A DNA stretch of 64,000 bases, taken from assembly GCF_004359215.1 (NCBI RefSeq), contig NW_027152195.1, forward strand, positions 40,564 to 104,563, read 5' to 3'. Origin of the DNA: Bremia lactucae. Lineage: Eukaryota; Oomycota; Peronosporomycetes; Peronosporales; Peronosporaceae. The position numbers were made by a program, and so were the translations under genes. Shown here one piece after another: positions 7,392 through 46,333 of the stretch. Under the pieces are notes generated by a model, which saw only the letters and a list, made by a program, of their open reading frames with translations, did no database searches and was not told the DNA's origin. Every line of letters begins with the position of its first letter. Position 1 is the first letter of the stretch.

Positions 7392-8217
7392 TCAGTGCGG
7401 CTTCGATCCATGATTGTACGGCCGACCGAAGCACTGAAAATATCGGCTAGACCTTTCTTCGTTTTGTGGCATAAATGCCAAACGTAACTGGCCTTTGGCC
7501 TTAAGCTTGGCTAAATCGAAGCGAAGCTTCCGCTCCAAACGAACATTAGTCACATCCGCAGACTCTCTAATATTCTAAATTTTGCGGAGGCGGCGGACCC
7601 GATGGACCCAGTTCTCAAATAAGATTTCGTTTTTACTTCTTGTTTCGTTTGGGAATAAAAAGATTGAAATTTCCCTCATTGAGGTCACCGAAGCCCCACC
7701 GGCTTGATCACGCAAGAGCGTCGGATACTGACTTCGCGTCATTACTTTGGCGTAATGTATCGCTCATGAAGAGCGTCACGAGAAGCGATCTCCTCCGGCA
7801 TCCTCACCGTGGAACCGGAGATCCAGATGGCCAAGTTGTGACCTGCGATCTCTTTGAGATGCTTTCCATACTTAACGGAATTAATCTGTAATTACTACGA
7901 GCTTTAGCTTTCGCTGTCTCTGCAGCTCGACGACGAGCTTGTTTCTCTATGAAAATTGCCCACTCTTACTCTTCATCGAGCGGATTCGTAATAATGTTGG
8001 ACTCAGAATCCTGTGTCCTGCTCAGTGCAGTTAGGAGATCAGCGGCACCATGTTCTGAGAACGGATTTAGGGCCCGCCGACGGTCATCCGGAGGAGAATG
8101 CGTGTAAGATCGACACTCTTGTTCCTTATCCTTTGATGGAGTGTGACGATCAAAGTCAACCATTACCTTATCGTCGAGGAAGGTGCTAAGAGTCTGTGAC
8201 TCACGCTTAATTTTCAT
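7392..8217 (-). pseudogene. Antisense frame of element A between chromodomain and 3' LTR
   Basis: Read opposite to gag-pol. It starts at an ATG at 8217, 113 bp from the 3' LTR, with MKIKRESQTLSTFLDDKVMV. It runs to PLDEE, a stop at about 7963, then EWAIFIEKQARRRAAETAKA followed by KARSNYR. Element D has the matching SSFLEDEEL...LDEELEQAI...CRAAAFAKAKA. Farther on, in other frames, lie MPEEIASRDALHERYITPK and a basic stretch LERKLRFDLAKLKAKGQLRL ending near 7392. Function unknown; I recognise no domain. One stop and at least two frameshifts. It could be chance, but the match to D argues against that. Confidence 0.6.
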
Positions 8218-8316
8218 GAAACAAAGGAAAGTAAAACGCAACCAAACGGTTAGCTGTTTATGTTTCAACCTCAAGGAGGAAATGAAGCGAATGTTGTCAC
8301 TCGGTGTCAGCAGTCT

Positions 8317-8329
8317 GATGGGGGTAGGG
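8317..8329 (+). other. Polypurine tract of element A
   Basis: GATGGGGGTAGGG lies immediately before the LTR start TGTAATGGGGC; it would prime plus-strand DNA synthesis. Confidence 0.7.
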
Positions 8330-8814
8330 TGTAATGGGGCACACATTTGGTTGGAGAACCGTTGTTGTGGTACTTTTTCTTTATGGGTAAAATACCCCTT
8401 ATCCTATTCGAAAATAGTTAATTACTTAAATCCCATGTATTATGGGTATCAAATGTGGTCGCCGCCAGATATAACTCTGACGGCCGAAATTTATTCTTAA
8501 ACTAGCTAGGGCTAGGTTTAAGATTAAATAATTATATAAAGTGCAGTTTCTCCTTTAATCTTGAAGCGTCTAGTGCCTTCCTAAGGCTTGCGCATTGATC
8601 CGAGAGAGACAGAAGCCTTTCTAAGGTATATACTCCCGGGCACTAGTTGCCACTTGGTTTTACTAACCCCTGGATCCTTTGAAATACGAATCATTAAGCT
8701 CTAATAGCTTGTGCGACTCCCTGAGTTGTTTAATGCATTAGATCTATTAAACTAAGAGACTCTCTGAGTCTGAAAGTCTTCCTCTGACTTCAGAAGTGAA
8801 GTAGCTCCGCTACA
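8330..8814 (+). repeat. 3' LTR of element A
   Basis: Starts TGTAATGG after the polypurine tract and ends CTCCGCTACA; aligns with 1337-1770. It defines the full length of this LTR family (~485 bp). Confidence 0.85.
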
Positions 8815-43462: not shown

Positions 43463-44507
43463 TTCAACGGCCTACGCACGTTCGATCCAGCATGGACTTG
43501 TTGATGAAGAAGGAGTAGCTCTCAAGCCCGTCAAAAGGCTTCCACGCAACGCGTAAAAGTTTACTCATTTGAGTGACTTTGAATAGAGAGTGGTCGAACG
43601 AGGGAATTCGGCCTTAGGAACGCCAGCCGTTAGCGCCATGTTGTTCGCCTCACAAAGAGTAGAGTAACATGTGGCTACAGCCGATTTCATATGACATGAA
43701 CTAGACGGGGCCCAAAGAAAAGTAACCTTGCTTCACCAGCAAGGCTCTTTACATGCAGAGGTGTTGAGAGAACCAGGGTTCTCAACAATATAATTGTTGA
43801 GACAGCCGAATTTACATTCTACTAGCGAATCGACGCTTCCGCGTCGATCCGTCTTAACGATCGAAATCTCAAACTTTTCGGCTGTCAAGGCGAATCCCTT
43901 TAAAGACGGCTCGTCGAATTAGACGACGCCATTGAAGCTAGCCGCATGCGACGAAAGTGAAATTTGGCATGTCCAACCTTGCCGGACAAGCCAAATGTTG
44001 GGTCTTAGGCTCAAGCTTCACGAGCCATTTGTCTTTAAGTCGAACGAGGTCTTTAAGACCCGGCTCAGGCAAACCCTTAAGCGCCACATGCCGAATTTAG
44101 GGCAAGATCTGAGCTCCTGGATTTGTAGCTATCGTGATCTTCACGTTTATGCCCAGCATACACGATACCTTGTCAGCTGTGTCGTTAGTCATACAATTGA
44201 TATAGAAACACAGGTAACTGTGTTTATAAAAGGTCTTGCAGACGGTCCTAATAGGACCCACTCTTCCGACTAGAATTAGAGTCGTTTGATCAAGCTATCG
44301 CTGTAGCAAAACAGGAAGACTTCAGCCTGATACAGGCTTTCGTCCACTTTGGTGATTATCGTCCAAATAGACGACAAGAATTGGGAGATCCAGAACTCAC
44401 AGACCTCTTGTATATGGAGAGCGAAAAAAACGCTCTTCGAGTTACAATCGATTGCAAAAATGCAATTGTCGTCAAAAGACGGGCAGCTACGCCTATGAGT
44501 GTTCCCT
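43463..44507 (+). pseudogene. gag: Gag of the family-2 element after the LTR at 42933
   Basis: A broken frame from an ATG at 43493. The readable part at 43932-44273 has LGLRLKLHEPFVFKSNEVFK, DLHVYAQHTRYLVSCVVSHT and TVFIKGLADGPNRTH, as in family-1 Gag (HAYAQHIRLLASCI..VFMQGLTDGPVKTH). A zinc knuckle follows in another frame, LQKCNCRQKTGSYAYEC (44440-44500). At about 44508 the strand of homology flips. Confidence 0.75.
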
Positions 44508-45355
44508 AAATTCAATCAAATCCTTGTATAAAGGATTTGTCTTAAGTGACTCCCAGGATTGATTAGTATATCTCTCAATCCGAGTCTTCACTTCGAGGAC
44601 ACTTTCGTCCATCGATGAGCTGCTGAGAATTCTTCGTTATATTCGGTCAGCGGTAATTTTTGCAGAGATTGAACGGGTTCTCTGCAAAAATTACCACTGA
44701 CCGAATATCGGTTACGTATACGTCTTCTGCGACGAGTACGCAGATCTGCTTGATTCCACCACTATGCAGATCTCTCAAGAACCGCTTGGGTTCGAGGGTT
44801 GGTAATTGAGTTATCTCCGAAGTTTAATTTGGAGGCGCATATAGATCAAGAGCATAAGCGCCTACTCTTGATCCGTCATTAATCAAGACATTCAATGTCT
44901 CGGTTTCTTCCTGGAATTTATTCACAGGCTGCCGAGAGGATCAATGCCTCGGGATGCTGAAGTCTAGACACTTCGGCATTAACTATTTGAGGAGATTTCT
45001 CCTCAAGTACGTGGGACTTATTCCCTCAACGTCTTCCAACTGATTGCGCTATCACAGTCGGGTCCTCTACGGTCGACTCTCTACTCGACCTAGGATCATC
45101 GTGTTGTCCATCTTTTTTGGACAACCGGTATCTTCCTTGAATGTCGCCCGCTAGGCGTACATTCATGTCTCAATCCACTCGACTTATTCGAGTGGTGGAC
45201 CTTCGGCGCTGCCTGTGCATTTGCACAGCCGCCGGCAGCTGACCCATAGGGTGATTAGTAATCACACTGTGATTTTGTGCAGTCGTACTTACGACTGTAC
45301 CACAAGTGAGGCCATCGCACTCACTCGTAGTACATTCACTCGCTTGTGGACGCAC
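44508..45355 (-). pseudogene. pol: Inverted pre-RT and protease-linker segment
   Basis: The minus-strand copy of the protease-RT linker matches 50960-51770 and 63330-64000. It includes MDESVLEVKTRIE-type text, the acidic TVEDPTV-type segment and the box SECTTSECDGLTCG (45340-45290). It sits between plus-strand gag and a plus-strand chromodomain, so it is an inverted piece. RT, RNase H and integrase are absent here. It contains the long hairpin at 44641-44706. Confidence 0.7.
44641..44706. repeat. 27-bp inverted duplication (hairpin)
   Basis: ATTCGGTCAGCGGTAATTTT.. (44641-44667) returns as its reverse complement at 44680-44706 with one mismatch and a 12-base loop. The homologous site at 51095-51130 has only one arm. 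Confidence 0.85.
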
Positions 45356-45622
45356 CAAGACGTTCAACGTTTTCTTGTGAAACGTATTCATAATCGCCGT
45401 GATATGAAGGGGCAGCGAGCGAGTTATCTTGTTCGCTGGCGCAGTTATCCACCTTCACATGACAGCTGGGAGCCTTGTTCCCAGCTGGTTGTTGCCGTTG
45501 AGGGCCTCGTCCGTCAGTATGACGAGACCCATCCGATGGATCAGAAGGTCCATCGGGAAACACGCGCGCCTTGCGCTTGTAAATTGATTGCAAAACGTCA
45601 ATCGCATCGCGTATCTCGATAG
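45356..45622 (+). pseudogene. pol: Chromodomain of family-1 element C3
   Basis: FLVKRIHNRRDMKGQRASYL then VRWRSYPPSHDSWEPCSQL and VVAVEGLVRQYDETHP: a complete chromodomain core with aromatic cage positions visible. It is the pol C-terminus. The antisense frame ends across its last codons. Confidence 0.85.
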
Positions 45623-46333
45623 AGATGCGAGCCCTTCCCCAGGGCAAAGAAAGATAATAGACATTCCCTTTTACTCGCTTCGTGTTGTCAACATAACACG
45701 GACAGGGATCACCGCTGGGATCAAGGCCATGTAGCTTTGTCGCAATAAATAAGGGATATTTATTGTGTAGAGTAGCCTCTCCAGACAAGCTATTGATTAG
45801 CTATTCGGGCAAAAGCCACGGCTTTTCCATAGGGACAAGACGAGACATTTTTTGTCTATGCTCCCCTAAGTGGTGCCCACTGAAGCAGGGGTATCACAAA
45901 CACTTTTCTTACGATGGCTTACGCCATCGTCATCACCACGCACAGAAATATGTGCGGGTGACGGCACGGGAGTCGGCGCTGGCGAAGAGGAACTATCCTC
46001 ATCGTCGGAACCAAACATGCTATAGCGAATGCTAATAGCACGTCTATCTGATTGAGCCCCCTCATTCGAAGGCTCATAGTCAGCTGCCTGACGATGATCA
46101 GGCGACTGTACTGCTCTCCCTGAGTCGGCTATTTCGTCCGACTCGCACTCATAGTCTACCTCCAAAGAGGGGTCGCATTCACGTAGTGAATCACCACGTG
46201 AACCCGCAACATTTAAAATTGCGGGGGAAGACGATACAACGGCAGACGGAACGTCTACCACAAGAGACAATAATGCGTCACTCGCGGCTGCAGGAACCAC
46301 AGCCGAAGGAGCCGCACTATTCGCATACCGCAT
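45555..46333 (-). pseudogene. Antisense frame of element C3
   Basis: 156 codons are open from MRYANSAAPSAVVPAAAS at 46333 (133 bp from the LTR). It is Ala/Ser-rich, then has ECDPSLEVDYECESDE, an acidic FGSDDEDSSSS and Pro-rich APTPVPSPA. After a stop it resumes (45788-45555) with IATKLHGLDPSGDPCPCYVD and GNVYYLSLPWGRARISIEIR then DAIDVLQSIYKRKARVF, which follows the same pattern as the tail of the element B antisense frame. The DPSLxVDY motif is shared with element G. Function unknown. Confidence 0.65.

What the first reader, a model, noticed from the sequence alone, without database searches (positions are those of the whole stretch)
7392..46333. Recurrent antisense protein frame between pol and the 3' LTR of several Gypsy families
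Five Gypsy elements (A 8217-7392, D 12350-12672, G 16071-16337, B 36441-35545, C3 46333-45555) and a sixth fragment (E 37112-37459) carry a reading frame on the strand opposite to gag-pol, always between the end of pol and the polypurine tract. The elements belong to at least three LTR families and point both ways in the window. Copies resemble each other at protein level although their DNA is divergent. Antisense ORFs are known in some plant Gypsy lineages. I know of no described one in this kind of element and cannot assign a function. An LTR-driven antisense transcript could encode a regulator, silencing suppressor or envelope-like factor; that part is speculation.
Basis: partly seen in the sequence, partly recalled or inferred. 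Interest (0 to 1): 0.9.

Follow-up and report, generated by a model that had tools for sequence, protein, structure and literature searches.

The report
Antisense protein genes in oomycete Gypsy elements
Gypsy-type jumping elements in this water-mould (oomycete) genome carry an extra protein gene written backwards behind their enzyme genes, shared with related downy mildews and Phytophthora; plant elements and some retroviruses are known to carry something similar, but these proteins match no described family we could find.

Summary
The antisense frames are real: they are decayed pieces of protein-coding genes. No window copy is intact. In a fuller copy (L049) the gene starts about 0.2 kb inside the 3' LTR and runs into the 3' end of pol, opposite the chromodomain. 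Full-length homologues are about 430-610 aa: disordered N-terminus, helical core, C-terminal coiled coil. D and G share a core; B is unrelated by the tests run. Homologues occur in Peronospora and Hyaloperonospora and, for D, Phytophthora. The overlap with the chromodomain is inferred in 9 of 9 D-type and 9 of 10 B-type proteins tested. Outside the overlap, antisense-frame dN/dS is 0.4-0.7, below the other same-strand frames in nearly all comparisons; most young copies have broken frames. The slot is known from plant Retand/Grande elements and HTLV-1 HBZ, but these proteins reach no Pfam cut-off, and the searches listed found no oomycete description. Most likely they are nuclear self-regulators made from an antisense transcript; transcription and function are inferred, not shown.

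The parts
1337..1770 (+). 5' LTR of element A (434 bp)
   Evidence: 84.6% identical to 8381-8814, K2P 0.168
3874..7362 (+). element A pol remnants: RT, RNase H, integrase, chromodomain
   Evidence: tblastn with pol pieces of related loci; domains named by Pfam on those pieces
6814..8217 (-). element A antisense gene, D-type, decayed; ATG at 8217 about 0.16 kb inside the 3' LTR; lower end overlaps integrase C-terminus and chromodomain
   Evidence: all 30 D-type proteins match in this stretch; 8217-7055 aligned to P0001 in pieces
8381..8814 (+). 3' LTR of element A
12460..12669 (+). element D antisense remnant, D-type; pol pieces on - at 12758-14016
   Evidence: 6 D-type proteins match
16071..16337 (+). 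element G antisense N-terminal piece, G-type; integrase piece on - at 16314-16568
   Evidence: no match to the D- and B-type proteins
   Evidence: 98 B-type proteins match; pol
37034..37552 (+). element E antisense remnant, B-type core
   Evidence: 93 B-type proteins match
45351..46348 (-). element C3 antisense gene, B-type, N-terminal and core part; gag and chromodomain pieces on + at 43947-44425 and 45365-45619
   Evidence: 87 B-type proteins match, 71% identity to P0034 in the best stretch
47820..48322 (+). further B-type antisense C-terminal piece, opposite pol (-) 47824-50970
   Evidence: 17 B-type proteins match
60227..60729 (+). second copy of the same piece, opposite pol (-) 60231-63662
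   Evidence: 17 B-type proteins match

Best explanation
Each of these element families carries an accessory gene on the strand opposite gag-pol. In the copies where both could be placed (window A, L049) its start codon lies about 0.2 kb inside the 3' LTR and its 3' end runs into the end of pol. An antisense transcript starting in or next to the 3' LTR would carry this frame first (inferred). The product, about 430-610 aa in full-length homologues, has a disordered N-terminus, a compact helical core, a linker opposite the chromodomain, a long coiled coil (predicted) and basic patches (read by eye). We infer that it self-associates, enters the nucleus and tunes the element's own LTR transcription or chromatin, as proposed for plant Retand/Grande antisense proteins and reported for HTLV-1 HBZ. 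Coding and conservation: about 0.92 likely. Nuclear self-regulation as the mechanism: about 0.4.
For: Homologues in other genera: 29 D-type proteins incl. Phytophthora ramorum 608 aa, 98 B-type incl. Peronospora matthiolae 529 aa, with clusters of 524 and 1335 member sequences, 11 G-type. Antisense-frame median dN/dS against the five other frames: D core 0.49 vs 0.65-1.06, B core 0.43 vs 0.59-1.19. Copies fetched by DNA similarity: pooled 0.56 vs 0.76-0.99 and 0.68 vs 0.73-0.96. Gag-pol-strand frames of the D core closed in 22 of 22 and 17 of 17. Stop-free hits by my hand count: D piece 124 of 150, D core 69 of 150, G piece 147 of 150, B piece 49 of 150. Predicted helical core and coiled coil in D and B. 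Overlap opposite the chromodomain inferred in 9 of 9 D-type and 9 of 10 B-type proteins tested. Precedents: PMC11963269, PMC7264820, PMC10186651 (passages), PMC10974842 (abstract and outline).
Against: No transcript, promoter or protein evidence was available. No functional domain or fold was recognised. Only 49 of 150 B-piece hits are stop-free. In the B core another same-strand frame is nearly as open as the antisense gene's frame (14 of 30 against 16 of 30; its dN/dS is 0.94). Over a second D-core range the value is 0.58 against 0.65-1.17. Among copies fetched by DNA similarity 42 of 45 distinct indels break the frame, and besides L049 only 1 of 18 readable copies is open over the ~290 codons read; the third-position excess there is small (2503, 2682, 2902). 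In the chromodomain overlap dN/dS is 0.81-0.82, no better than other frames.
Confidence: 0.45

Rival explanations
1. The antisense protein blocks host RNA silencing or chromatin silencing of the element (silencing suppressor) rather than regulating the LTR.
For: Convergent transcripts would form double-stranded RNA with gag-pol RNA, so an element that makes antisense RNA would gain from a suppressor (inference); the gene sits in high-copy families.
Against: No RNA-binding or other known domain above a Pfam cut-off; no functional data.
Confidence: 0.2
2. The protein is a structural or integration cofactor (gag-like or integrase-tethering) made from the antisense RNA.
For: All-helical core plus coiled coil; the B-type core has three invariant cysteines and a nearly invariant histidine, zinc-knuckle-like by eye.
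Against: No Retrotrans_gag or zinc-knuckle Pfam hit in the antisense proteins; a Retrotrans_gag frame is found on the sense strand of such elements.
Confidence: 0.15
3. The antisense RNA itself is the functional product and the open frame is incidental.
For: Noncoding antisense transcripts are known for other retroelements (PMC7264820, passages).
Against: dN/dS below that of other frames outside the overlap; full-length homologues in other genera.
Confidence: 0.08
4. The similarity is a by-product of a conserved sense-strand sequence.
For: Plausible for the chromodomain part, where antisense dN/dS is 0.81-0.82. The gag-pol-strand frame at offset 1 has lowish dN/dS over the cores (0.59-0.65; 0.74; as low as or lower than the antisense frame in the 5 G copies).
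Against: The core lies beyond the chromodomain. That gag-pol-strand frame shares wobble positions with the antisense frame and has stops in 22 of 22 D-core, 30 of 30 B-core and 5 of 5 G copies.
Confidence: 0.05

Closest known systems
Plant Retand/Grande/RIRE2 antisense ORFs (aORF-3R; TRP28, PF04195)
   Same: Antisense protein gene between pol and 3' LTR, kept across many families; role proposed to be regulatory; Grande GENE23 nuclear and transcribed antisense (PMC11963269, PMC7264820, passages).
   Different: Retand is described as a non-chromovirus lineage; here pol ends in a chromodomain that the antisense gene overlaps. No TRP28 hit. Different host kingdom.
HTLV-1 HBZ (retroviral antisense gene)
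   Same: Antisense gene; in HTLV the antisense promoter is inside the 3' LTR (PMC7264820, passage); HBZ is nuclear and lowers 5' LTR expression (PMC10186651, passages). A zipper-type coiled coil is a structural parallel (HBZ's position and domain recalled).
   Different: No bZIP Pfam hit; promoter and localisation untested here.
Oomycete Chronos Ty3/Gypsy elements
   Same: Oomycete Ty3/Gypsy with a chromodomain at the end of pol (PMC5348765, section 5 read).
   Different: Chronos has a second, plant-like RNase H; in the D-type pieces scanned only one RNase H was found and L050 leaves no room for another. 'Antisense' does not occur in that paper's main text.
Mytilus Steamer-like element MchSLE-1 antisense mRNA
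   Same: 3' LTR drives an antisense RNA with an ORF that can be expressed (PMC10974842, abstract and outline).
   Different: Animal host; sequence relation not tested.

Membership tests
Ty3/Gypsy LTR retrotransposon with chromodomain (host element) | RT, RNase H, integrase and chromodomain in this pol order | tested here: met
   D-type loci: RVT_1, RT_RNaseH, Integrase_H2C2 and Chromo; rve and SH3_Tf2-1 below their cut-offs. B-type: SH3_Tf2-1 and Chromo. G-type: SH3_Tf2-1 only. Same order in window element A. RT phylogeny not done.
Chronos (oomycete Ty3/Gypsy) | second, plant-type RNase H next to the first | tested here: not met
   D-type only: RT_RNaseH/RT_RNaseH_2 hits and no other RNase H; 86 bp between the RNase H and integrase frames in L050. 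B- and G-type elements not tested.
Chronos (oomycete Ty3/Gypsy) | chromodomain at the end of pol | tested here: met
   Chromo E 6e-13 (D-type, L051) and 4e-14 (B-type, L049)
Retand antisense ORF (TRP28) | TRP28 domain PF04195 | tested here: not met
   not listed for 6 antisense pieces at E<=1 nor for 10 homologues at E<=0.1
[quoted passage not shown]
   here it also overlaps pol
HBZ-like antisense regulator | bZIP domain | tested here: not met
   no bZIP Pfam hit; long helix predicted only
HBZ-like antisense regulator | transcription from an antisense promoter in the 3' LTR; nuclear location | not testable with these tools
   no RNA or protein data

The most novel reading that the evidence does not exclude
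Two unrelated protein families have come to occupy the same antisense slot of oomycete chromodomain Gypsy elements, in the same overlap frame with the chromodomain (offset 1 in D and B). They would be a dedicated, ancient (older than the Phytophthora/downy-mildew split, if inherited vertically) class of retroelement self-regulators that keep or time their own silencing, working like HBZ without being related to it.
Probability: 0.35. Interest if true: 0.78.

Novelty: new variant of a known kind. Interest (0 to 1): 0.62.

Why it matters
If true, well over a thousand gene models in downy mildews and Phytophthora (two Peronospora matthiolae clusters alone hold 1859 member sequences), most named uncharacterised and two named RxLR effector candidates, are retrotransposon antisense genes. 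It would also give another group, beside plants and retroviruses, with a conserved antisense accessory gene near the 3' LTR, so that the open question of what such genes do could be tested with existing strand-specific RNA data.

Tried and rejected
Tail-to-tail composite element: L049 and L050 have two elements meeting tail to tail. Of the 20 D-piece loci L029-L048, 12 align up to the same LTR edge, 3 (L039, L040, L043) carry the L049 flank sequence nearby, and of 150 B-type against 150 D-type hits only three pairs lay within 3 kb in that arrangement. I treated it as nesting plus duplication; it is not excluded.

B-type related to D or G: the cores do not match (hhalign E 0.49 and 0.54). The weak whole-protein D-B match falls in the chromodomain overlap. 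For D-G, 0 of 200 column shuffles reached the real score (37.5 against at most 24.4).

Chronos membership: rejected for the D-type elements on the single RNase H. LINE-like frames at 16.6-21.6 kb beside G: not part of the finding.

Biases: L009-L048 were fetched by protein score; L049, L050, L053-L072 and L073-L077 mainly for long open frames; L051 and L052 for nearness of D and B hits. The open-frame fractions are therefore inflated. The 20 copies were fetched by DNA similarity of the LTR side of L049 instead. Of these 20 plus L049, four (L079, L092 mostly N; L085, L093 divergent) were dropped before the counts, but not from the indel count. The script stopped on a division by zero after the N-terminal part; the rest was run. 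G-type dN/dS (0.40 and 0.70) rests on 5 copies chosen for open frames. Stop-free counts were made by hand from capped lists of 150.
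Full report
WHAT WAS CLAIMED.

WHERE WE ARE. The window is G000:C110:40564-104563 of a 115.9 Mb genome in 220 contigs. The named homologues found below are from Peronospora, Hyaloperonospora and Phytophthora, so the host is most likely an oomycete of that group. Size and Gypsy load resemble the Bremia lactucae assembly (115 Mb with 24 Mb of gaps, 58.6% of contig sequence Gypsy; PMC6570648, passages). 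The species is an inference and was not tested.

THE FRAMES ARE REAL. Searching the antisense translations against the window gives A-D similarity (50%, E 7e-11) and B-E similarity (52%, E 2e-12; a second piece E 2e-14) on the antisense strand. Genome-wide, the D, B and G pieces each fill the 150 scored places, out of 1004, 3222 and 2198 first-look candidates. By hand count of the printed lists, 124 of 150 D-piece hits (about 60 codons), 69 of 150 D-core hits (141 codons), 147 of 150 G hits (about 80 codons) and 49 of 150 B hits (about 65 codons) have no stop. The B figure includes a run of 28 equal-scoring copies with one TAG each.

ANATOMY. Element A has two LTRs, 1337-1770 and 8381-8814, 84.6% identical, so it is an old insertion. 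Its pol runs on + (RT 3874-4980, RNase H 5149-5520, integrase from 5715, chromodomain to about 7362). Its antisense gene runs on - from an ATG at 8217 to about 6814, so it starts about 0.16 kb inside the 3' LTR and ends opposite the integrase C-terminus. In the fuller copy L049 the LTR outer edge is at 4182 (shared by 12 of 20 D-piece loci) and the antisense ATG is at 4778; its frame is open for 388 codons from there. In L051 the sense chromodomain lies opposite the antisense linker, frame offset 1. For D, G, B and C3 pol pieces also lie on the opposite strand; for E only distant gag and RT pieces do. Two more antisense pieces were found at 47820-48322 and 60227-60729. The window copies are broken.

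THREE TYPES, TWO FAMILIES. D-type (A, D), B-type (B, E, C3 and the two extra pieces) and G-type (G). The D and G cores align (hhalign E 1.3e-5, probability 81%, 30% identity over 61 columns; 0 of 200 shuffles reach the score). The B core matches neither. A long C-terminal helix, read as a coiled coil, is predicted at 375-430 in D and 424-514 in B; for G it is seen in the sequence only. The D core has pLDDT of about 80-90. The stretch opposite the chromodomain is below 50 in both models and probably disordered.

RELATIVES ELSEWHERE. Protein searches gave 29 D-type hits (named ones: Peronospora effusa, P. matthiolae, Hyaloperonospora arabidopsidis, Phytophthora ramorum 608 aa, P. cactorum), 98 B-type hits (named ones: P. 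matthiolae with clusters of 524 and 1335 member sequences at 529 aa, P. effusa, and two H. arabidopsidis records called RxLR effector candidates) and 11 G-type hits (P. effusa, P. farinosa). Many others are unnamed ENA or JGI contig proteins. The DNA around these hits could not be read. Instead I asked how well each peptide can lie opposite the known sense reading in the observed frame. 9 of 9 D-type peptides tested (of 29) scored 202-275 against shuffle maxima of 94-135. 9 of 10 B-type peptides tested (of 98) scored 212-280 against at most 180; P0127 failed (106 against 126). 6 of 6 G-type peptides tested (of 11) exceeded their shuffles, but that stretch lies opposite sequence near the end of pol in a reading with a stop, not opposite a recognised chromodomain. 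The passing peptides are 26-73% identical to the reference and some are close relatives of each other, so part of the score is shared ancestry. The result is that the overlap is conserved, not that it arose repeatedly.

SELECTION. In the D core (codons 100-205, 22 copies) the antisense-frame median dN/dS is 0.49 against 0.65-1.06 in the five other frames; the frame is open in 15 of 22, the other five in 0 of 22. Over codons 120-240 (17 copies) it is 0.58 against 0.65-1.17, open in 8 of 17. In the N-terminal part (22 copies) it is 0.51 against 0.64-1.10. In the B core (30 copies) it is 0.43 against 0.59-1.19; the frame is open in 16 of 30, and another same-strand frame in 14 of 30 (all). The lowest competing frame over the cores shares wobble positions with the antisense frame and has stops in every copy. 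In the chromodomain overlap the antisense values are 0.82 (D) and 0.81 (B), no better than the rest. Because those copies were picked by protein match or open frame, I repeated the test on copies fetched by DNA similarity (17 rows used of 21): pooled dN/dS 0.56 against 0.76-0.99 (codons 1-95) and 0.68 against 0.73-0.96 (codons 96-260); the antisense frame is stop-free in 14 of 17 and 7 of 17, the other five frames in 0 of 17. The codon-position signal there is weak (2503, 2682, 2902 differences). Against the claim, 42 of 45 distinct indels in these copies break the frame and, besides L049, only 1 of 18 readable copies is open throughout. That is expected of dead insertions or assembly errors, but it means that most individual copies are not functional.

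WHAT IT MOST LIKELY DOES. No domain, fold or PDB relative was recognised; low-scoring Pfam hits are mostly coiled-coil families and none reaches its cut-off. The placement by the 3' LTR, the coiled coil and the basic patches suggest a nuclear, self-associating regulator translated from an antisense transcript. Plant papers propose this for Retand/Grande proteins, and HBZ does it in HTLV-1 (passages). A silencing suppressor is the main rival. Neither transcription nor function was tested.

NOVELTY. [quoted passage not shown] an antisense mRNA is known in a mussel element. I found no description for oomycetes in the searches, of which I saw the top 10-20 listings with the beginnings of abstracts. 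The main text of the oomycete Gypsy paper PMC5348765 does not contain the word antisense. The library lacks most subscription journals, so this is not proof of absence.

Noticed in passing
P0116 and P0127 (Hyaloperonospora arabidopsidis): B-type homologues recorded as RxLR effector candidate proteins; P0116 scores as lying opposite a chromodomain, P0127 does not, so at least one looks like a mislabelled retroelement gene.
   Followed up: partly
window 47328-50970 and 59735-63662: Gag, integrase and antisense pieces recur at an offset of about 12.4 kb, as if the segment were duplicated.
   Followed up: no
window 16615-21575 (+): Long frames resembling a non-LTR (LINE) element by eye (endonuclease-like frame at 20467-21156) next to the truncated element G.
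   Followed up: no
L051 623-1924 and 8632-9910: 1.3 kb inverted copies (94.7%) that carry G-type antisense sequence flank a nested patch of elements.
   Followed up: no
A2 (P0045 residues 267-287): B-type core has three invariant cysteines (277, 284, 287) and a nearly invariant histidine (267), possibly a metal site.
   Followed up: no
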